From Arcanobacterium pluranimalium (lineage in GTDB: Bacteria; Actinomycetota; Actinomycetes; Actinomycetales; Actinomycetaceae), in contig NZ_JAFBCS010000001.1 in the NCBI RefSeq assembly GCF_016907845.1, positions 1 to 64,000 on the forward strand: 64,000 bases of DNA, in the 5' to 3' direction. The stretch's first letter is position 1. Every line of letters starts with the position of its first letter. A program made the position numbers and the translations under genes. The notes under the pieces are model-generated. The model made no database searches. It was not told where the DNA came from and saw only the letters and a list, made by a program, of their open reading frames with translations. This document shows positions 2,669-50,980 of the stretch, in pieces.

Positions 2669-3706
2669 ATGGAAGAATCAATTCAGTGGGCTGAGGATAT
2701 GCTCGGCGCAGGCTTCACCTCCACGATCATCAATCTCGACCCCGTCGCTGGCACGCAGCAACGATGCGCGATCACTAAATATCTTCCCCAGCGCGATCCG
2801 CACCCTTTTACCCCAGCTCAACTCCCTATGAGCACCCCACAAAAAGAGTTCATCCTGATCACAATTCACGGCTGGAATGATTATTTTTACCACAAGGAAT
2901 TCTCCCGTTTCATCGGCGCTATAGGCGGCCATCTATACGCTCTTGACCTGCGCCGTTACGGCAGATCGCACCAACCTGGTGAACCCTGGGGCTACACCGA
3001 TTCGCTCGCCGTTTACGACGAAGAAATTCAGCAGGCCATCACAATTGCCCGCTCCGAGCACCCTGGCTGCCCCGTCATCATGTACGGCCACTCTACCGGC
3101 GGCCTCACCGTCTCTCTCTGGGCAGATCGCCACCCTAACAGCTTCGACGGTCTCATCCTCAATTCGCCATGGCTATACACCGATTTGTCCGGCGTGAAGA
3201 TGCGCGTCCTCAAGCCAATCGCCAAATTAATGGCCAAAATCAAGCCGCTCCATATTTTTAAAACGCACGACGACGGCTTCTACCAGAAAATCCTTAGCGG
3301 CCAACACGCTCTCAGCGCCGACGACGATCCCAACGATCCGTTCTTCACAACCGGTTGGGAAGCCGACCCACGTCTGCGCCACTTTCCCACCTTCCCTGTC
3401 CGAGCCGGCTGGATCAACACAGTACTTGCTGGTCAGAAACGTATCGCGCAAGGACTCAATATCCAGCAGCCTATCTTGGCTCTCACATCGAGCCGATCCT
3501 TGATCACCACCTCATGGTCACCGGAAGTACTCGAGGTAGACAACGTGCTCGACCTCGAGCACACCTGGCCATTGATCGAAAACTTAGGCAATGACGTCAC
3601 GCTTTGCAAAATCGACAAGGGAATTCACGACGTCGTATTCTCACGCGGCAGCGCCCGCACGCAAGCTTACCTCGCAATTACGCAGTGGATTCACGACAAG
3701 CTCTGA
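2669..3706 (+). CDS. Alpha/beta hydrolase (serine aminopeptidase S33/lysophospholipase-like)
   Basis: A 345-residue cytoplasmic hydrolase. It has an oxyanion-region ITIHGWNDYF segment, a DLRRYGRS strand-turn, the nucleophile elbow GHSTGG (catalytic Ser) and a late GIHDVVFS containing the likely catalytic His. Together these match the monoacylglycerol lipase/S33 hydrolase fold. The substrate cannot be read from sequence. The ATG at 2669 is preferred over the longer frame from 2468 because the extra 67 codons come from a C-rich low-complexity tract. The start lacks a Shine-Dalgarno but has a -10-like CACAAT 6 bases upstream, which fits a leaderless mRNA. The gene converges with the dehydrogenase, 20 bases away. 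Confidence 0.82.
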   Translation: MEESIQWAEDMLGAGFTSTIINLDPVAGTQQRCAITKYLPQRDPHPFTPAQLPMSTPQKEFILITIHGWNDYFYHKEFSRFIGAIGGHLYALDLRRYGRSHQPGEPWGYTDSLAVYDEEIQQAITIARSEHPGCPVIMYGHSTGGLTVSLWADRHPNSFDGLILNSPWLYTDLSGVKMRVLKPIAKLMAKIKPLHIFKTHDDGFYQKILSGQHALSADDDPNDPFFTTGWEADPRLRHFPTFPVRAGWINTVLAGQKRIAQGLNIQQPILALTSSRSLITTSWSPEVLEVDNVLDLEHTWPLIENLGNDVTLCKIDKGIHDVVFSRGSARTQAYLAITQWIHDKL

Positions 3707-3726
3707 ACCTCGAGCTTGCCCAACCA

Positions 3727-6700
3727 CTAGTCAGCACGCCTGCGCACGTCTTTGCCTCGCAAGAGCAGCTCCGCCAGATGCACGCCGTTCGCACCCGCGA
3801 GCTGCTGCGCCTGCGTACGACACGAGAAACCATCAGCTAGGAAGACGGCATCCTTCCGCGCCGCCCGCAACTTTGGCAAAAGCGAATTTTCAGCAATTTT
3901 CGCCGAAATTTCGTAATGCCCCTGCTCCATACCGAAATTGCCAGCGAGTCCGCAGCAGCCGCTCAGTATCGTGAGCTCAGCGCCACAGTCACGCAATAGC
4001 TTGGCGTCGGCCGCCCAACCCATCACCGAATAATGGTGGCAATGCGGCTGCGCCACAACTTCCACACCCCGCAAATCCGGCAATTTCTCCTGCTCACCAA
4101 TCCCATAGTCCACATGTGTTAACAGCTCAGCTAATGTGAAAGTCATGGCAGAAACGAGACCTGCGCGGGCGTCGTCGGGCAATAAATCGAGCACGTCGTC
4201 GCGCAAAACTGCTGTACACGATGGCTCCACGCCCACAATCGGAATCCCACTGGCGGCAAACGGTGCCAGCACTTCCAACAACATGTACAATTTCTTCTTC
4301 GCAGTACCCAGCTGACCAGTGGTAATCCACGTCAGGCCGCAACAAAGGTCGCGCGGCGGAATGAGCACCGTGTACCCCATACGCTGCAAGAGCCGCACTT
4401 GCGCTTGCGCACCACGCGTGTCGAGCGTTTCGGAGAACGAATCCGCCCAAAGCATCACATATTTCGCATTTTCTTGAGGTACGACGCCGGTGTGAGCCAT
4501 TCGCCCAAACTCACCCACATGTGTACCTGAGTCGATAAGCTTGCTGGCGATAGTCGAAAATCGCGTGGCGGCAAATCCTGGCATAGACCGCCTAGCGTCA
4601 ATTCCGACCACGGTAAATGCGGCTTTCTTGATGAAACCAATGCTCATGAGTTTATTTGCGAGGCGCGACGCCCCAGGAATTGAGGTGGCCAGACGCGCAA
4701 GAGTCGGCAAATTTCCCAGCACATAGTGGGTGCGTGGGCGAATTTTCCTCCGATAACGTCTAAAGAGCACCTCAGAGCGATAGCGCGCCATATCGACGCC
4801 AGTCGGGCAATCCGCTGAGCAGGCTTTGCATGCGAGACACAGGTCAAGCGCTCCGGCCACTGCGGAGTCGGCGAACCCGGTAACTAACGTACCGTTGGCT
4901 ACCTCTTGCAAAACTCGCATTCTACCTCGGGTAGCGTCTTTTTCTTCGCGGGTTGCCAGATACGACGGACACATGAAAAAGCCGGCGGCAGTGCGATCTG
5001 CCCGGCAATTTCCCACACCAGTGCAGCGGTGAAGGGCGTTCGTGAAGTTGCCGGCATCGTCGTGAAAATGGAAACCGCCAGCATAATCCATCTTATGAGC
5101 AGCCGGGCGGCGCAAATTCTTATCAAAAGGAACCGGATCAACCAACACGCCCGGATTCAAGAAATTCTCTGGATCAAAAATCCCTTTTACCTGCGAAAAC
5201 AATTCCACCGAATGCGGGTCAAACATGCGGGGAAGTAACTCCGATCGTGCCCGCCCGTCGCCGTGCTCCCCAGAAAGCGAGCCACCAAAGCGCGCCACCA
5301 GATCAGCCGCTTCCTCCATAAAACCGCGAAATACCTGCACACCGCTTTGCTCATCGAGCGGAAAATCGATTCGCACATGCATGCAGCCGTCGCCAAAATG
5401 CCCATACATCAAGCCCGAGAGCTGGTAAGACTCCATGAGCGCCTGCAGTTGGCGCAAATACTCCCCCAGGTGTTCGGGAGGTACGGCGCTGTCCTCCCAG
5501 CCTGGCCAGGCTTGAGAACCACTGGGTGTGCACCCACCTAATCCTGCCCCATCTGCCCGAATTCTCCACAGCTCAGAGGCCTGGGCGCCAGCAGGCAGAA
5601 TACGAACCGCATCCGTGCCAGCATCTGCGGCGAGAGCTGCAGCACGCGCGGGAACTGCAGCGGCGTCGTCACCCTCCTCGGCCCCTACCTCGATAAGCAA
5701 CCACCCACCACCTGCTGGCAAATCAGGAACACTCCCTTTTGCACGGCGGACGACGTCCACGAGCTGCGCGTCGATGCCTTCAATCGCCAAGGGCTTATGT
5801 TTGAGCAGGTCTGGCACGTGATCGGCCGCAGTGGGCATGTCAGGGTACCCCAAAACCACCAGCATTGGCGCTTGGGCGAGAGGCACGAGCCGAAGGCGCG
5901 CTTTGAGGATCGTAACAAGCGTACCCTCACTTCCTACCAGCATTTTTGCAAGATTTTCACCATTTTCTGGCAGCAGATGCTCAAGAGAATACCCCGAGAC
6001 TTGCCGCGAAAACTGCCCAAAGTTGTGCCGGATATGAGCGAGATTCTCAGAAATGAGGGTTTTAAGCTCAGGGCTCGCGTCTAGACCACGTTCAGAAGCA
6101 GTGAATTCGCGCCCCTGCCCGTCAATGCAATCGAGTTCCACCACGTTATCTGCAGTTCTGCCCCAGGCCACGGCATGAGGACCACAGGCGTTATTTCCAA
6201 TCATTCCGCCCATTGTTGCACGATTTTGGGTGGACGGATCGGGGCCAAAGCGCAGGCCATATTTCGCCGCTTCCCGTTGCAGATCACTCATGACGACGCC
6301 GGGCTCAACGAGCGCAGTGCGGGTTGCAGGGTCTATTTCCACGATGCGATTCATATGCCGCGAAAAATCGATCACTGCACCTGCCCCGATTGAGTTACCG
6401 GCTACCGAGGTGCCACCGCCACGCGAAGTAATAGGAATTTGATACTTGCGGCAGATACGTAAAGTAGAGACGACGTCGTCACGCGAGCGCGGAAACACCA
6501 CGAACGCAGGAGGAACTCGGTAATTTGAGGCGTCGGTGGAGTACTGGGCTTGGGCGAGCACCGAAGAATCGACGCTTCCAGTAATTGCTGCATTAATTTC
6601 GGTGATGGCGCTCTGTACTGCTTGAACGTCGTGTGGGGCGACGACGGATTGCTGGTGCCCGATAACGCGCTGGTGCCCAGGCACGTCACGTTGGCGCCCT

Positions 6701-40241: not shown

Positions 40242-40313
40242 GGGCCTCTAGCTCAATGGTAGAGCTCCGGACTTTTAATCCGTAGGTTGCGGGTTCGAGT
40301 CCCGCGGGGCCTA
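40242..40313 (+). tRNA. tRNA-Lys (UUU anticodon)
   Basis: A full cloverleaf: acceptor GGGCCTC with GGGGCCT (one G-U at the end, one T-G), D arm around AGCTCAATGGTAGAGCT, anticodon loop CTTTTAA (anticodon TTT), and T arm GCGGGTTCGAGTCCCGC. No CCA is encoded. A terminator follows directly. Confidence 0.95.
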
Positions 40314-40319
40314 CCGCAC

Positions 40320-40359: not shown

Positions 40360-40399
40360 GTGTTCGCGTCGAATCGACGCCACCCACATGAGGGCTATA

Positions 40400-40567
40400 G
40401 GACAAATCGTGTTGGTTTTTGGGTGTGTTTTTGTTGGTGTGGTAAGCAATAGTCGGGTTTGAAGTCGGTTTGGCTCGAGTTTTTGGTTGGACATTTCGTG
40501 TTGGTTTTGGCCTGGTTTTTTGTTGGTATTGCGGGTGAAAGTAGGGTTTGAACTCGGTTGACTTGAG
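40400..40567. repeat. Tandem duplication of the IS-A left end
   Basis: Within IS-A the stretch from GGACAAATCGTGTTGG (40400-40479) is repeated in diverged form from GGACATTTCGTGTTGG (40489-40567), at a period of about 89 bases. Both units end in a GGTTTGAA-xTCGGTT motif. The element therefore carries a second, subterminal copy of its inner left repeat. The same applies to the other two copies. Confidence 0.8.
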
Positions 40568-40570
40568 GGT

Positions 40571-41686
40571 ATGGGAAATCCTCGTTGTTCATTGTGTGGT
40601 TCAGTTACCCAAAAGTGGGGCAAGAGTGGTTCTGGTCGGCCCCGATTCCGTTGTCTGTCGTGCCGGGCGAGTCAAAGTCGTTCTAATGATGTCACTGCTC
40701 GTTATTTCGCAGCTTTTCTCAATTTCGTGACCTCGGATCTGCGTTATCGGGATCTGCCTGGTCAGGGGCGAAATGCTCGGCGTCGATTCCACCAGTTTTG
40801 GCAGTTATGGCCAGTGAGTCCAGTTGTTGAGGAGGTTCATCACGTGGTTTTTGTGGATGGGATATATCTGTCACGCAAACTTGTTGTGCTGATCGCTTGT
40901 ACGAAAACACATGTTCTTGGCTGGTATGTAGCACGTCGTGAGACAACGGCTGCGTGGCAAGCATTGTTTTCACGTATTGCACCACCAGATGTTGTTGTAT
41001 GTGATGGTGGTCCAGGAATTGCTTCGGCTGTGAAAATTTCATGGCCCACTACCCGTATTCAACGCTGTGTCTTTCACGCTTTTAGCACTGTCAAGCGCTA
41101 TACCACGAGCCGGCCACGTACTCGTGCTGGTGTTGAGCTTTATGGTCTTGCGAAAGACTTATTACACATCCACACGCGTGAGGAAGCGCTTGCATGGATG
41201 GGTCAGTTAGCGGTGTGGAATACGGCATGGAAGGCGTTCCTTGCTGAGAAAACTCGCCTTGCGAACGGTCAGATTGTTCCCACTCATGCACGGCTTATTC
41301 GTGCTAAAAATTCGCTTAATACTCTGGTACGTCATGGAACGTTATTTACCTATCTTGATCCGAGTCTGAGTATTGATGATGACCCGATTCCTGCAACGTC
41401 TAACCTGATTGAATCCCTGAACTCGCGTTTACGACATGTGTTGAGATCGCATCGTGGAATGCCGATCGATCACCAGGTCAAGACGATTTTATGGTGGTGT
41501 TATCAACACACGGAGTTTCCTAACACGCCAGCGCAGTTACTGGAAACTACCTACACGGATAGCCAAATCGAAGCCATGTTCACCCGAGCCAGTCACCACC
41601 ATGCCCAAGAAGAAATCCAGCGATGGGGAACAGCAGCGAACTGGACCGATTTCCACCACAACGGCCAATGGCAAGGACCGGTATAA
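40571..41686 (+). CDS. IS-A transposase, copy 1
   Basis: A 371-residue DDE transposase of the IS1249-like group. An N-terminal zinc ribbon (CSLCG ... CLSC, residues 6-31) is followed by the catalytic Asp in VFVDGIYLS, Asp in VVCDGGPG, and Glu in SNLIESLNSRLR. A conserved RCVFHAF follows the second Asp. GAGGG lies just before the ATG. The encoded protein is identical to copies 2 and 3. Confidence 0.95.
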   Translation: MGNPRCSLCGSVTQKWGKSGSGRPRFRCLSCRASQSRSNDVTARYFAAFLNFVTSDLRYRDLPGQGRNARRRFHQFWQLWPVSPVVEEVHHVVFVDGIYLSRKLVVLIACTKTHVLGWYVARRETTAAWQALFSRIAPPDVVVCDGGPGIASAVKISWPTTRIQRCVFHAFSTVKRYTTSRPRTRAGVELYGLAKDLLHIHTREEALAWMGQLAVWNTAWKAFLAEKTRLANGQIVPTHARLIRAKNSLNTLVRHGTLFTYLDPSLSIDDDPIPATSNLIESLNSRLRHVLRSHRGMPIDHQVKTILWWCYQHTEFPNTPAQLLETTYTDSQIEAMFTRASHHHAQEEIQRWGTAANWTDFHHNGQWQGPV

Positions 41687-41793
41687 AAAACCAACACGAT
41701 TTGTCCTATAACCCCCACATGAACCGCCGCGAACAGACACGAACCGCCGCCAACCGCGCAGGCCAACACGAACATAGACACAAACCAACACAC

Positions 41794-46674: not shown

Positions 46675-46747
46675 GGCTCTGTAGCTCAGTTGGTAGAGCG
46701 TTCGACTGAAAATCGAAAGGTCACCGGATCGACGCCGGTCGGAGCCA
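46675..46747 (+). tRNA. tRNA-Phe (GAA anticodon)
   Basis: Acceptor GGCTCTG with CGGAGCC, anticodon stem TTCGA/TCGAA, loop CTGAAAA (anticodon GAA), T arm ACCGGATCGACGCCGGT. No CCA is encoded. The T-loop starts ATCGA in place of the usual TTCGA. Confidence 0.95.
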
Positions 46748-46754
46748 CAAGGTT

Positions 46755-46783
46755 AAGCCCCTGCTCAGCAGGGGCTTCTTTGT
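46755..46783 (+). terminator. Terminator of the tRNA cluster
   Basis: A 10-bp stem, AAGCCCCTGC/GCAGGGGCTT, with a 3-base loop, then CTTTGT. IS-B begins about 20 bases later. Confidence 0.75.
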
Positions 46784-46853
46784 ATATACGCGGGGCCTGT
46801 TGGGGGTTAAGCGCCAAAATGGGGCTATAGGACAAATCGTGTTGGTTTTTGGG

Positions 46854-48176
46854 GGGCTATAGGACAAATCGTGTTGGTTTTTGGGTGTGTTTTTGTTGGT
46901 GTGGTAAGCAATAGTCGGGTTTGAAGTCGGTTTGGCTCGAGTTTTTGGTTGGACATTTCGTGTTGGTTTTGGCCTGGTTTTTTGTTGGTATTGCGGGTGA
47001 AAGTAGGGTTTGAACTCGGTTGACTTGAGGGTATGGGAAATCCTCGTTGTTCATTGTGTGGTTCAGTTACCCAAAAGTGGGGCAAGAGTGGTTCTGGTCG
47101 GCCCCGATTCCGTTGTCTGTCGTGCCGGGCGAGTCAAAGTCGTTCTAATGATGTCACTGCTCGTTATTTCGCAGCTTTTCTCAATTTCGTGACCTCGGAT
47201 CTGCGTTATCGGGATCTGCCTGGTCAGGGGCGAAATGCTCGGCGTCGATTCCACCAGTTTTGGCAGTTATGGCCAGTGAGTCCAGTTGTTGAGGAGGTTC
47301 ATCACGTGGTTTTTGTGGATGGGATATATCTGTCACGCAAACTTGTTGTGCTGATCGCTTGTACGAAAACACATGTTCTTGGCTGGTATGTAGCACGTCG
47401 TGAGACAACGGCTGCGTGGCAAGCATTGTTTTCACGTATTGCACCACCAGATGTTGTTGTATGTGATGGTGGTCCAGGAATTGCTTCGGCTGTGAAAATT
47501 TCATGGCCCACTACCCGTATTCAACGCTGTGTCTTTCACGCTTTTAGCACTGTCAAGCGCTATACCACGAGCCGGCCACGTACTCGTGCTGGTGTTGAGC
47601 TTTATGGTCTTGCGAAAGACTTATTACACATCCACACGCGTGAGGAAGCGCTTGCATGGATGGGTCAGTTAGCGGTGTGGAATACGGCATGGAAGGCGTT
47701 CCTTGCTGAGAAAACTCGCCTTGCGAACGGTCAGATTGTTCCCACTCATGCACGGCTTATTCGTGCTAAAAATTCGCTTAATACTCTGGTACGTCATGGA
47801 ACGTTATTTACCTATCTTGATCCGAGTCTGAGTATTGATGATGACCCGATTCCTGCAACGTCTAACCTGATTGAATCCCTGAACTCGCGTTTACGACATG
47901 TGTTGAGATCGCATCGTGGAATGCCGATCGATCACCAGGTCAAGACGATTTTATGGTGGTGTTATCAACACACGGAGTTTCCTAACACGCCAGCGCAGTT
48001 ACTGGAAACTACCTACACGGATAGCCAAATCGAAGCCATGTTCACCCGAGCCAGTCACCACCATGCCCAAGAAGAAATCCAGCGATGGGGAACAGCAGCG
48101 AACTGGACCGATTTCCACCACAACGGCCAATGGCAAGGACCGGTATAAAAAACCAACACGATTTGTCCTATAACCC
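46854..48176 (+). mobile_element. IS-A copy 2, inserted in the left end of copy 3
   Basis: A complete 1323-bp element with both inverted repeats, in the same orientation as copy 3. It is flanked by the 8-bp duplication TTTTTGGG (46846-46853 and 48177-48184), which is part of the IS-A terminal sequence. Copies 2 and 3 thus form a head-to-tail tandem, with copy 2's right end next to the remaining leader of copy 3. Confidence 0.95.
47033..48148 (+). CDS. IS-A transposase, copy 2
   Basis: A 371-residue DDE transposase identical in sequence to copy 1 (zinc ribbon CSLCG/CLSC; Asp in VFVDG, Asp in VVCDGG, Glu in NLIESLNS). It lies in an IS-A whose two ends are intact, so it is potentially fully active. 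Confidence 0.95.
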   Translation: MGNPRCSLCGSVTQKWGKSGSGRPRFRCLSCRASQSRSNDVTARYFAAFLNFVTSDLRYRDLPGQGRNARRRFHQFWQLWPVSPVVEEVHHVVFVDGIYLSRKLVVLIACTKTHVLGWYVARRETTAAWQALFSRIAPPDVVVCDGGPGIASAVKISWPTTRIQRCVFHAFSTVKRYTTSRPRTRAGVELYGLAKDLLHIHTREEALAWMGQLAVWNTAWKAFLAEKTRLANGQIVPTHARLIRAKNSLNTLVRHGTLFTYLDPSLSIDDDPIPATSNLIESLNSRLRHVLRSHRGMPIDHQVKTILWWCYQHTEFPNTPAQLLETTYTDSQIEAMFTRASHHHAQEEIQRWGTAANWTDFHHNGQWQGPV

Positions 48177-48331
48177 TTTTTGGGTGTGTTTTTGTTGGTG
48201 TGGTAAGCAATAGTCGGGTTTGAAGTCGGTTTGGCTCGAGTTTTTGGTTGGACATTTCGTGTTGGTTTTGGCCTGGTTTTTTGTTGGTATTGCGGGTGAA
48301 AGTAGGGTTTGAACTCGGTTGACTTGAGGGT

Positions 48332-49447
48332 ATGGGAAATCCTCGTTGTTCATTGTGTGGTTCAGTTACCCAAAAGTGGGGCAAGAGTGGTTCTGGTCGG
48401 CCCCGATTCCGTTGTCTGTCGTGCCGGGCGAGTCAAAGTCGTTCTAATGATGTCACTGCTCGTTATTTCGCAGCTTTTCTCAATTTCGTGACCTCGGATC
48501 TGCGTTATCGGGATCTGCCTGGTCAGGGGCGAAATGCTCGGCGTCGATTCCACCAGTTTTGGCAGTTATGGCCAGTGAGTCCAGTTGTTGAGGAGGTTCA
48601 TCACGTGGTTTTTGTGGATGGGATATATCTGTCACGCAAACTTGTTGTGCTGATCGCTTGTACGAAAACACATGTTCTTGGCTGGTATGTAGCACGTCGT
48701 GAGACAACGGCTGCGTGGCAAGCATTGTTTTCACGTATTGCACCACCAGATGTTGTTGTATGTGATGGTGGTCCAGGAATTGCTTCGGCTGTGAAAATTT
48801 CATGGCCCACTACCCGTATTCAACGCTGTGTCTTTCACGCTTTTAGCACTGTCAAGCGCTATACCACGAGCCGGCCACGTACTCGTGCTGGTGTTGAGCT
48901 TTATGGTCTTGCGAAAGACTTATTACACATCCACACGCGTGAGGAAGCGCTTGCATGGATGGGTCAGTTAGCGGTGTGGAATACGGCATGGAAGGCGTTC
49001 CTTGCTGAGAAAACTCGCCTTGCGAACGGTCAGATTGTTCCCACTCATGCACGGCTTATTCGTGCTAAAAATTCGCTTAATACTCTGGTACGTCATGGAA
49101 CGTTATTTACCTATCTTGATCCGAGTCTGAGTATTGATGATGACCCGATTCCTGCAACGTCTAACCTGATTGAATCCCTGAACTCGCGTTTACGACATGT
49201 GTTGAGATCGCATCGTGGAATGCCGATCGATCACCAGGTCAAGACGATTTTATGGTGGTGTTATCAACACACGGAGTTTCCTAACACGCCAGCGCAGTTA
49301 CTGGAAACTACCTACACGGATAGCCAAATCGAAGCCATGTTCACCCGAGCCAGTCACCACCATGCCCAAGAAGAAATCCAGCGATGGGGAACAGCAGCGA
49401 ACTGGACCGATTTCCACCACAACGGCCAATGGCAAGGACCGGTATAA
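48332..49447 (+). CDS. IS-A transposase, copy 3
   Basis: A 371-residue DDE transposase identical to copies 1 and 2. Its coding region is intact, but the element's outermost 24-32 bases lie on the far side of copy 2. The 155 bases before the ATG still include the subterminal repeat, so expression may continue. Confidence 0.95.
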   Translation: MGNPRCSLCGSVTQKWGKSGSGRPRFRCLSCRASQSRSNDVTARYFAAFLNFVTSDLRYRDLPGQGRNARRRFHQFWQLWPVSPVVEEVHHVVFVDGIYLSRKLVVLIACTKTHVLGWYVARRETTAAWQALFSRIAPPDVVVCDGGPGIASAVKISWPTTRIQRCVFHAFSTVKRYTTSRPRTRAGVELYGLAKDLLHIHTREEALAWMGQLAVWNTAWKAFLAEKTRLANGQIVPTHARLIRAKNSLNTLVRHGTLFTYLDPSLSIDDDPIPATSNLIESLNSRLRHVLRSHRGMPIDHQVKTILWWCYQHTEFPNTPAQLLETTYTDSQIEAMFTRASHHHAQEEIQRWGTAANWTDFHHNGQWQGPV

Positions 49448-49505
49448 AAAACCAACACGATTTGTCCTATAACCCCCAAAATGCGTTGCTTTTGACGGCG
49501 TGTTG

Positions 49506-50690
49506 TTAGCGTCCGGCCCAGCTTTTTCGGATGTGGAGGCTGTCTTCCCATGGTTGTTCGTGGTTGATGGTGGTGTCGATTTCGACGGGTCCGGGTTGTT
49601 CTTCTTGGACTGGTTGCTTTGGGGGTTGCGTGATGTTGTCGATGAAGCTTTCTAAGGGTTTGGGGTCGATACTGTTGGTGTATAGCCAGTAATTGATTGC
49701 GGTGAGCATGTGTTCTTCTGACCAGCCTCGGTGAGCGTGAAGGAAAGCTTTCAGGGGCGAGTTGATCCCACCTTCAAGCTTATTAGTCGTCGAGGCAAGG
49801 ACAGTGGTTGTGTCTAGGTCGTCTCTGAGGTAGGTAAACAAGACCTGGTCTTTGACGTATCGGTCGAGAGATTTTATGATGCGTCTGGTCTGGTAGTGTG
49901 TGTACCACCATTTCTTATTATTTCTTGCGAAAGTGGGAATATCACTGATGGACACATCGGTGCGGTATGTTTTCTCTTCCAACCAGTCATCGTAGAGCTG
50001 GTGGAACGCTGCTAACGCTTTGACCCAAGTGATAGCGTGCTCTGCTGTGTTTATGCGGGTCAGGTCGCGTCCGAGTTGGTGTAGAGCCTTGTGTTGATCG
50101 GTTTTCGGGTTGATGGTTGTCACGCGTCGAATATTGCGTTGGATATGGACAAGGCAGCGTTGAATACGTGCTTCTGGCCAGCATTGTCTAATCGCCCCTA
50201 GTGCTCCTTTATCCCCATCAGTGACTACCACGATTGGAGCGGGGATACGTGAAAGTAGAGCCGTATAGGAGGCTTTGTTTTCACGTTGGCATACCTGATA
50301 AGTGATCACGCCCTTAGTGGTGGATGCGATCAAGATGCACCAACCATAGGGAATATAGGTCCCGTCAATAAAGACCTGGTCATATACCTCGCCTGTCACC
50401 TGCCATGCGGGTCTGGTGTGCCAGCACCAGGCATGCGTACGGTCCCAGGTGCGTAACGAGGATCCTTGGACGCGCCTGGGCGCGGTGTCCGTGACATAGG
50501 CAAGGAACTGGCGAAACTGACGCTGACGTTGTTGACGGTAATCGCGCGATGTTGAACTGTAGCGACAATCAGGGCAATACCAGCGTTGAGTACCGGACTT
50601 GTTCTTCCCGTTTTTCTTCATCATGCTTTGACATAAAGGACACCGTCGGGCTCGAATACTACGTTTTCTCACCCAAAGTACATAACCCAA
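49506..50690 (-). CDS. IS-B transposase
   Basis: A 394-residue transposase related in layout to IS-A but clearly diverged. It has an N-terminal zinc ribbon (CPLCQ ... CPDC), the catalytic Asp in VFIDGTYIPYG, Asp in VVTDGDKG, RCLVHIQ, and Glu in TNKLEGGINSPLK. It has an extended Gln/Pro-rich C-terminus. The start is a TTG at 50690 or a GTG six codons later; a TTGACA lies just upstream. The frame is intact although its left inverted repeat is interrupted. Confidence 0.88.
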   Translation of the reverse strand: MGYVLWVRKRSIRARRCPLCQSMMKKNGKNKSGTQRWYCPDCRYSSTSRDYRQQRQRQFRQFLAYVTDTAPRRVQGSSLRTWDRTHAWCWHTRPAWQVTGEVYDQVFIDGTYIPYGWCILIASTTKGVITYQVCQRENKASYTALLSRIPAPIVVVTDGDKGALGAIRQCWPEARIQRCLVHIQRNIRRVTTINPKTDQHKALHQLGRDLTRINTAEHAITWVKALAAFHQLYDDWLEEKTYRTDVSISDIPTFARNNKKWWYTHYQTRRIIKSLDRYVKDQVLFTYLRDDLDTTTVLASTTNKLEGGINSPLKAFLHAHRGWSEEHMLTAINYWLYTNSIDPKPLESFIDNITQPPKQPVQEEQPGPVEIDTTINHEQPWEDSLHIRKSWAGR

Positions 50691-50802
50691 GCCATGTCAA
50701 GGAACCTACCGTATAGAGCTCCTATACCTCAATAACACCGACTTTCCATTACCATGCCAGTGAAAAGTCGGATCTTAAGCAACGCTTTTTGGCGCTTAGC
50801 CC

Positions 50803-50920
50803 TGGTCTGGTGGCGTGGACAGGCCTGGTGTCCCCGTACGCGGGTCTGGTGGCGCATACTCAGGCCTGGCGAGGCGCCGAGCCACAGCCATCGCGGGTCT
50901 GGGTCGAATCCCGAACGTCT
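50803..50920. other. CTGG/GGCG-rich stretch between IS-B and palindrome
   Basis: About 120 bases with repeated GGTCTGGTGGCG-type words (50805-50816 and 50852-50863) and no gene. It lies directly before palindrome copy 5. Confidence 0.5.
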
Positions 50921-50980
50921 TTTGGTGCTCTTTTTGCAACATCTCGATATATCTCGAGATGTTGCAAAAAGAGCACCAAA
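50921..50980. repeat. Dispersed palindrome, copy 5
   Basis: A 60-bp inverted repeat. Arms TTTGGTGCTCTTTTTGCAAC and the exact complement; centre ATCTCGATATATCTCGAGAT. Both arms differ from the other copies at matching positions (GGTGCTC/GAGCACC), so the pairing is preserved while the sequence drifts. Confidence 0.92.

What the first reader, a model, noticed from the sequence alone, without database searches (positions are those of the whole stretch)
46804..50802. Three-level nested insertion sequences with exact target duplications
IS-B (leftward transposase) has its left inverted repeat split by an IS-A, leaving CCAAAATG at 46814-46821 and 49476-49483. That IS-A has its left inverted repeat split by an identical IS-A, leaving TTTTTGGG at 46846-46853 and 48177-48184. 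The order of events is IS-B, then copy 3, then copy 2. Both inner hits fall within a terminal repeat, in the same relative place and on the tRNA side, which suggests that IS-A targets IS ends. The head-to-tail tandem may form composite or circular intermediates. Assemblers could also collapse this array.
Basis: seen in the sequence. Interest (0 to 1): 0.75.

Follow-up and report, generated by a model that had tools for sequence, protein, structure and literature searches.

The report
Jumping genes homing behind tRNA genes
The nested insertion sequences are real, and they are probably stacked there because their transposon family tends to insert just past the end of tRNA genes, in an orientation set by lineage, so that nesting is a side effect of repeated hits on one landing zone.

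Summary
The nest is real: IS-B (1337 bp) is split by IS-A copy 3, itself split by an identical copy 2 (1323 bp), with exact 8-bp duplications; IS-B itself lacks one. Both are IS1249-family elements. IS ends are not the main target. All 9 IS-A copies have exact duplications, but only the two nested ones hit IS ends. Instead 9 of 12 IS-A/IS-B copies lie within 200 bp downstream of a tRNA 3' end, a zone covering 0.41% of the genome. Of 114 insertions from many genomes, 46 have a tRNA gene within 300 bp (intergenic control 6.1%; related IS256 elements 0 of 12). At all 46 the tRNA 3' end faces the element, on the side expected for its lineage in 44. Insertions without a nearby tRNA still favour terminators on that side (17 of 68 versus 5 opposite). 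A self-nest behind tRNA-Ser in another genus (L128) shows the same geometry. Best reading: the transposase is directed just past terminators, chiefly of tRNA genes, and nests are repeat hits. Ten searches of an open library found no report of this. The recognition mechanism is inferred.

The parts
46675..46748 (+). tRNA-Phe gene whose 3' end faces the nest
   Evidence: ARAGORN; Rfam tRNA 46675-46747
46755..46784 (+). intrinsic terminator of the tRNA unit (AAGCCCCTGCTCAGCAGGGGCTT, T-rich tract from 46777)
   Evidence: terminator scan in script
46804..50802 (-). IS-B, 1337 bp without its insert (46804-46821 plus 49484-50802), IS1249 family; transposase-downstream end faces tRNA-Phe; no flanking duplication
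   Evidence: NCBIfam NF033544 390.2 bits, cut-off 300
49506..50690 (-). IS-B transposase, 394 aa, open reading frame intact
46814..46821 (+). target duplication CCAAAATG, left copy (right copy 49476-49483)
49476..49483 (+). target duplication CCAAAATG, right copy
46822..49475 (+). IS-A copy 3, split: 46822-46853 plus 48185-49475 (1323 bp)
48332..49447 (+). IS-A copy 3 transposase, 371 aa, open reading frame intact
46846..46853 (+). target duplication TTTTTGGG, left copy (right copy 48177-48184)
48177..48184 (+). target duplication TTTTTGGG, right copy
46854..48176 (+). IS-A copy 2, complete, identical to copy 3; subterminal copy of the terminal repeat at element position 95
47033..48148 (+). 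IS-A copy 2 transposase, 371 aa
   Evidence: NF033544 452.5 bits, cut-off 300
40242..40315 (+). tRNA-Lys gene whose 3' end faces IS-A copy 1
40392..41714 (+). IS-A copy 1, 1323 bp, duplication CCACATGA, 78 bp from the tRNA 3' end

Best explanation
IS-A and IS-B are IS1249-family elements whose insertion is directed to the DNA just past intrinsic transcription terminators, above all those of tRNA genes. The transposase-upstream end faces the tRNA in the IS-A lineage; the transposase-downstream end faces it in the IS-B lineage. The nest is three successive hits on the landing zone behind tRNA-Phe. IS-B begins 56 bp past the tRNA. Copy 3 begins 74 bp past it, inside the near end of IS-B. Copy 2 begins 106 bp past it, inside the near end of copy 3. 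Shown: nesting, duplications, tRNA and terminator proximity, facing, side by lineage, spacing. Inferred: that the cause is target choice by the transposase; that it reads the terminator, or the RNA polymerase stopping there, rather than the tRNA sequence (duplications commonly start 11-40 bp past the start of the T tract, near where the front of a terminating polymerase would be; footprint recalled); and that transposition goes through copied-out circles, as in the related IS256 family.
For: Own genome: 9 of 12 copies (6 of 9 IS-A, 3 of 3 IS-B) within 200 bp downstream of a tRNA 3' end, zone 0.41% of the genome, binomial 7e-20 (8 of 11 without copy 2, 1e-17); four IS-A ends at 74, 74, 74 and 78 bp. 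Wider set: 114 duplication-bearing sites kept from 186 examined places plus 10 own copies. 46 of 114 have a tRNA within 300 bp versus 6.1% of 9979 intergenic control positions, where facing and reversed tRNAs are about equal (3.5% and 2.9%). None of the tRNAs at the 46 sites is reversed; 44 of 46 are on the lineage side, Fisher 1e-10. Distance 41-79 bp in 25 of 46. T-tailed terminator within 50 bp, pointing at the element: clade A of the window's bacterial family left 19 of 50, right 3; clade A outside it with left end TATAGGACA left 8 of 17, right 2; other clade A outside it left 0 of 23, right 8; clade B left 0 of 24, right 7; intergenic controls 3.3% and 4.3%. Sites without tRNA: lineage side 17 of 68, opposite 5. 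Places dropped for lack of a duplication: 17 of 39 have a facing tRNA. IS256 control: tRNA at 0 of 12 sites and 1 of 30 loci. Self-nest behind tRNA-Ser plus terminator in L128, inner hit 67 bp past the T tract versus 69 bp here.
Against: Three of nine IS-A copies (119429, 930207, 1844241) have no tRNA nearby; 119429 sits in a hairpin loop rather than behind a terminator. 68 of 114 sites have no whole tRNA within 300 bp, and 51 of those also lack a scored terminator on the lineage side. The strict hairpin test was weak in the second set (left 5, right 3 of 31) and failed in the outside set (left 2, right 5 of 35); terminators were recovered there only with a T-tail test, and the side only after a split by terminal repeat, both chosen after seeing those data. 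The side is not absolute: 2 tRNA exceptions, and 8 side changes on the tree versus 15.9 in shuffles. The subterminal left-end repeat of clade A does not predict the side. tRNA and T-tract distances are correlated 0.94 over 31 pairs, so the true landmark is not resolved. The IS256 control is small. No transposition was observed.
Confidence: 0.82

Rival explanations
1. IS-A recognises IS ends (its own and related terminal repeats) as targets, as IS30 does, and nests form for that reason.
For: IS1249-type termini lie within 45 bp of 12 of 114 duplications, about 1 expected. IS30 targets its own inverted repeats (PMC9333248, passages). Self-nests in two genera. Two sites (G197:1930480, G217:1796724) lie in or beside a short end remnant whose tip points away from the tRNA, and L168 has extra termini on both sides.
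Against: 7 of 9 IS-A insertions have no IS1249 terminus nearby; offsets within ends are scattered; most reconstructed nests are on the tRNA- or terminator-facing end, which end-targeting alone does not predict; IS30-type adjacency is not the rule.
Confidence: 0.08
2. Insertion is random and selection leaves only harmless sites; the zone behind a tRNA terminator is a safe haven.
For: Such sites do not cut the transcript, and a bias toward harmless places is expected for any surviving insertion.
Against: Intergenic control positions give 3-4% for terminators and 6.1% for tRNAs, about half of them reversed; the sites give 40% with none reversed. IS256 elements of the same bacterial family show 1 of 30. 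Safety does not predict opposite sides in two lineages or spacing of 41-79 bp.
Confidence: 0.1
3. The array is an assembly error or a tandem duplication by recombination or slippage rather than nested transposition.
For: Copies 2 and 3 are identical, and no reads could be examined.
Against: Both inner levels carry the exact 8-bp duplication predicted; the split copy lacks nothing; the genome is one contig; the same architecture occurs in L128 of another genus.
Confidence: 0.02

Closest known systems
IS1249 family (NCBIfam NF033544; IS256 / Mutator superfamily)
   Same: Both transposases pass the family cut-off; terminal inverted repeats and 8-bp duplications.
   Different: No target preference found in print in my searches; here a tRNA/terminator preference with a side set by lineage. 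A 2014 survey says IS256 insertion appeared random and does not hold the words IS1249 or terminator in its main text (PMC3942029, passages).
TnGBS / ISLre2 / ISKra4 (Mutator-superfamily elements inserting 15-17 bp upstream of sigma-A promoters)
   Same: Transposases of the same superfamily; oriented insertion at a short distance from a transcription signal (PMC3942029, passages).
   Different: They use the start of transcription units; the IS1249 elements here use the end.
ISAjo2 group of the IS1202 family
   Same: Single-transposase IS in one orientation a few bp from a fixed landmark (PMC10132070, passages).
   Different: Landmark is a dif/pdif site; duplication 5 bp; other family.
Type V-K CAST and TniQ-guided Tn7-like elements
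   Same: Use tRNA genes as insertion landmarks (PMC11406308, passages).
   Different: They use guide RNA or TniQ-type proteins; IS-A carries one transposase gene.
IS30
   Same: Tandem copies; inserts at its own ends (PMC9333248, passages).
   Different: IS30 inserts next to its inverted repeats or in a hot-spot sequence; here positions within ends are scattered and a tRNA is the landmark.
IS1272 (stem-loop replacement); group IIC introns (recalled: insert behind terminators)
   Same: Stem-loops or terminators as landmarks (IS1272: PMC5678879, passages).
   Different: IS1272 replaces the stem-loop and makes no duplication; here duplications are exact and the terminators beside the sites remain.

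Membership tests
IS1249 family | Transposase matches NF033544 above its curated cut-off (300 bits) | tested here: met
   452.5 (IS-A) and 390.2 bits (IS-B)
IS1249 family | Conserved acidic catalytic residues and N-terminal cysteine cluster | tested here: met
   D96, D145, E281 and C6, C9, C28 over 97% conserved in 47 proteins; their roles are inferred
IS1249 family | Terminal inverted repeats and 8-bp target duplication (typical values recalled) | tested here: met
   9 of 9 IS-A copies; IS-B 1 of 3 directly and 1 more with a 9-bp repeat outside a doubled end; the window IS-B has none
IS1249 family | Copy-out/paste-in through a circle | not testable with these tools
   known for IS256 relatives (PMC7780238, passages)
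IS30-type targeting of own ends | Insertion next to an inverted repeat as one of two defined target types | tested here: not met
   hits scattered at positions 5-12 to 34-41 or outside; 102 of 114 sites have no IS1249 terminus within 45 bp
IS1272-type stem-loop replacement | Loss of the target stem-loop, no duplication | tested here: not met
   9 of 9 IS-A duplications exact; terminators present beside most own sites
CAST / Tn7-like | Accessory targeting proteins and guide array | tested here: not met
   one transposase-length ORF per element; no search for guide arrays was made
TnGBS-type promoter targeting | Insertion 15-17 bp upstream of sigma-A promoters | not tested
   no promoter scan was made at the sites

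The most novel reading that the evidence does not exclude
IS1249-family transposases are guided by the transcription machinery: they contact RNA polymerase (or a factor) as it stops at strong terminators, chiefly of tRNA genes, and insert at its leading edge. They would be the end-of-gene mirror image of the Mutator-superfamily elements that insert at promoters, and a single-protein insertion-sequence family homing to tRNA gene ends in general rather than to one tRNA.
Probability: 0.3. Interest if true: 0.82.

Novelty: new variant of a known kind. Interest (0 to 1): 0.62.

Why it matters
How simple one-protein transposons choose safe sites is largely open. This family offers a strong, easily measured bias: many different tRNA genes, one facing, a side set by lineage, short spacing. 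Related lineages prefer opposite sides, so the determinant can be sought by swapping transposase domains or ends. It also explains why IS1249 elements pile up beside tRNA genes, and suggests a route to elements with doubled ends, such as IS-B at C1:404883-406219 and L182.

Tried and rejected
Tried and dropped: (1) IS-A targeting of palindromes centred on the duplication. Suggested, but sites inside T-tailed hairpins were not in excess (3 of 50, p 0.38; 2 of 40; 1 of 24). (2) A sequence motif in the target: only a weak preference (A at bases 2-4 and T at bases 4-6 of the duplication, G two bases past it). (3) The strict hairpin threshold as the only test: left 18, right 3 of 50 in the first set, 5 and 3 of 31 in the second, 2 and 5 of 35 in the third. 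The T-tail test was added after that. (4) The left subterminal repeat as cause of orientation: present in most clade A elements whichever side they use. (5) tRNA versus terminator as landmark: not separable. (6) Other stable RNAs: Rfam on 40 loci in two calls of 20 gave tRNAs, several beyond or cut by my 300-bp limit, and one RNase P. (7) A count of sites lying inside ORFs of 60 aa or more (81 of 114) is uninformative, as such ORFs are everywhere in this DNA. (8) Literature: ten searches of an open-licence library showed no report of IS1249 target choice in the listings seen; subscription papers were not searched.

Cautions: hairpin energies use my own simplified stacking table, typed from recall and applied equally to sites and controls. 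Coding regions in the controls are plain ORFs of 100 aa or more. Clade and side labels rest on a FastTree tree and on the terminal repeat; the split of the outside set by terminal repeat was made after seeing the data. In the IS256 control 6 of 30 loci are cut short, so parts of their flanks were not seen.
Full report
OBSERVATION. IS-B runs 46804-46821 and 49484-50802 (1337 bp). It is split by IS-A copy 3 (46822-46853 and 48185-49475) with CCAAAATG at 46814-46821 and 49476-49483. Copy 3 is split by IS-A copy 2 (46854-48176) with TTTTTGGG at 46846-46853 and 48177-48184. Copies 2 and 3 are identical over 1323 bp, as is the copy at 40392-41714. The genome is one contig of 2,095,799 bp with nine IS-A copies, three IS-B copies and one diverged relative of IS-B. 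All nine IS-A copies have exact 8-bp duplications. IS-B in the window has none, so its original boundary is changed or lost.

IDENTITY. Both transposases are IS1249 family (NCBIfam NF033544, 452.5 and 390.2 bits, cut-off 300), 34% identical to each other, and fall in two clades of the family. D96, D145, E281 and a cysteine cluster are conserved over 47 proteins.

FIRST LEAD. Rebuilding the empty sites showed that most IS-A insertions lie shortly downstream of an intrinsic terminator, on the left (transposase-upstream) side. I tested this on copies from other genomes. Of 64 places (60 regions), 40 had a duplication; with 10 own copies this gave 50 sites. Of 56 further places (42 in the regions in named genomes), 31 had one. 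Of 66 places in a third set, 35 were kept, 27 had none and 4 were repeats or too short. After removal of 2 repeats 114 sites remained, 90 of clade A and 24 of clade B.

TERMINATORS. With a strict hairpin threshold the first set gave left 18 of 50 and right 3 of 50, against 3.1% of 6837 intergenic control positions. The second set gave 5 and 3 of 31, the third 2 and 5 of 35. With a T-tailed terminator within 50 bp, pointing at the element: clade A of the window's bacterial family, left 19 of 50 and right 3; the own IS-A copies among them, 6 of 9 left and 0 right; outside clade A sites whose left end reads TATAGGACA, left 8 of 17 and right 2; other outside clade A sites, left 0 of 23 and right 8; clade B, left 0 of 24 and right 7. 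Intergenic controls were 3.3% (5473 positions) and 4.3% (2718 positions). The left/right contrast between the two kinds of lineage has Fisher p 2e-8, but the split of the outside set was made after the data were seen. On a tree of 47 proteins the observed side changes 8 times, against a mean of 15.9 and a minimum of 8 in 1000 shuffles.

tRNA GENES. Reading the nests showed a tRNA gene behind several of them. Over all 114 sites, 46 have a tRNA gene within 300 bp. The control is 1.4% of all positions (15 tRNAs in 500 kb) and 6.1% of 9979 intergenic positions, with facing and reversed tRNAs about equal there (3.5% and 2.9%). At the 46 sites none is reversed, and the side fits the lineage in 44; the exceptions are G138:285608 and L273. 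The nearest tRNA end is 41-79 bp away in 25 of 46, and 16 kinds of tRNA are used. The count is a lower bound: Rfam found further tRNAs beyond or cut by the 300-bp limit. Among 103 places of the window's bacterial family (3 of the 106 examined were left out), 47 have a facing tRNA within 600 bp of the transposase match, including 17 of the 39 without a duplication; none has only reversed tRNAs, though two have reversed ones besides. IS256 elements of the same bacterial family, fetched as a control, have a tRNA at 0 of 12 duplication-bearing sites and at 1 of 30 loci within 700 bp (6 of the 30 are cut short). In the own genome, with 46 tRNA genes, 9 of 12 IS-A/IS-B copies lie within 200 bp past a tRNA 3' end, in a zone that is 0.41% of the genome (binomial 7e-20). 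Four IS-A ends are at 74, 74, 74 and 78 bp. The IS-A left end and the IS-B transposase-downstream end face the tRNA in all nine.

NESTS. The window nest sits behind tRNA-Phe and its terminator: IS-B 56 bp, copy 3 74 bp and copy 2 106 bp past the tRNA. L128, another genus, has an element split in its left end by an identical element, same orientation, duplication GATCTTTT, behind tRNA-Ser and a terminator; the inner hit is 67 bp past the T tract there and 69 bp here. L165 has, behind a terminator, a 20-bp clade-A left end, then the downstream-end part of a clade-B-like element with its end toward the terminator, then a complete clade-A element. Doubled downstream ends face a tRNA or terminator in L160, L180, L182 and in IS-B at C1:404883-406219. 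L319 lies in the end of an older element that had used the same site, past a tRNA-Phe, as L280 in another genome. Exceptions: L168 has a doubled end toward a terminator but also a terminus-like stretch on its far side, and G197:1930480 and G217:1796724 lie in or beside a short remnant whose tip points away from the tRNA. Only the 64 places were scanned for extra ends on both sides. IS1249-type termini lie within 45 bp of 12 of 114 duplications, about 1 expected. Repeated use of one landing zone predicts such an excess, so IS-end recognition is not needed, though it is not excluded as a second preference.

MECHANISM. Shown: site, facing, side and spacing. Inferred: target choice rather than selection, because related lineages use opposite sides, no tRNA is reversed at the 46 sites, spacing is short, and IS256 elements do not share the bias. 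Terminators without tRNA are also used (17 of 68 on the lineage side, 5 opposite), which favours the terminator, or the polymerase stopping there, over tRNA sequence. The excess at tRNA genes suggests that heavy transcription matters. tRNA and T-tract distances are correlated 0.94 over 31 pairs, so this is not settled. Most clade A elements carry a second copy of the terminal repeat at about position 95 (184 in some) of the left end, and the clade B elements examined do not; it does not predict the side.

COMPARISON. Mutator-superfamily elements TnGBS, ISLre2 and ISKra4 insert upstream of promoters, while IS256 appeared random (PMC3942029, passages). ISAjo2-type elements insert, oriented, beside dif sites (PMC10132070, passages). 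CAST and Tn7-like elements use tRNA genes through guides or TniQ (PMC11406308, passages). IS30 uses its own ends or a hot spot (PMC9333248, passages). None of these is the same. Ten searches of the open library listed no description of IS1249 target choice. I therefore call it a new variant of a known kind.

TANDEM AND CIRCLES. There is no abutted right-left junction in the array; there are two left ends 32 bp apart. Pairing of the outer left end with copy 2's right end would give a 1355-bp element with a doubled end. Doubled-end elements bearing an outer 8-bp duplication exist in relatives (L168, L182), so such mobility is plausible but not shown here.

Noticed in passing
window 50921-50980: A 60-bp near-perfect palindrome (TTTGGTGCTC..GAGCACCAAA) beyond IS-B; similar TTTTTGCAACATCTC stretches lie beside IS-A at C1:1389931 (L035 5273) and IS-B at C1:404883 (L038 4305). 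Possibly a small repeat family.
   Followed up: partly
C1:404883-406219 (L038): IS-B copy with an extra, slightly diverged transposase-downstream end and an outer 9-bp repeat (CATGTTTTC), next to an IS-A-like end remnant and facing tRNA-Arg.
   Followed up: partly
C1:800845-801999 (L031, L049): Diverged IS1249-family copy (66% DNA identity to IS-B) with one TAG in frame; no tRNA within 25 kb by the list.
   Followed up: no
window 46854-47021 and relatives: Most clade A elements carry a direct second copy of the terminal repeat about 95 bp (184 bp in G139, G138, G125) inside the left end; clade B elements examined lack it.
   Followed up: partly
window 50803-50880: Flank of IS-B carries repeats of GGTCTGGTGGCG; it does not duplicate the other flank, so this side may have been rearranged.
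   Followed up: no
L160, L156, L157, L159 (G181): Elements with two or more right ends in series, partly shared by several copies, as if a doubled-end form had itself spread.
   Followed up: no
L067, around the element at 3001-4076: Clade A element inserted at the centre of a long inverted repeat (arms of at least 37 bp).
   Followed up: no
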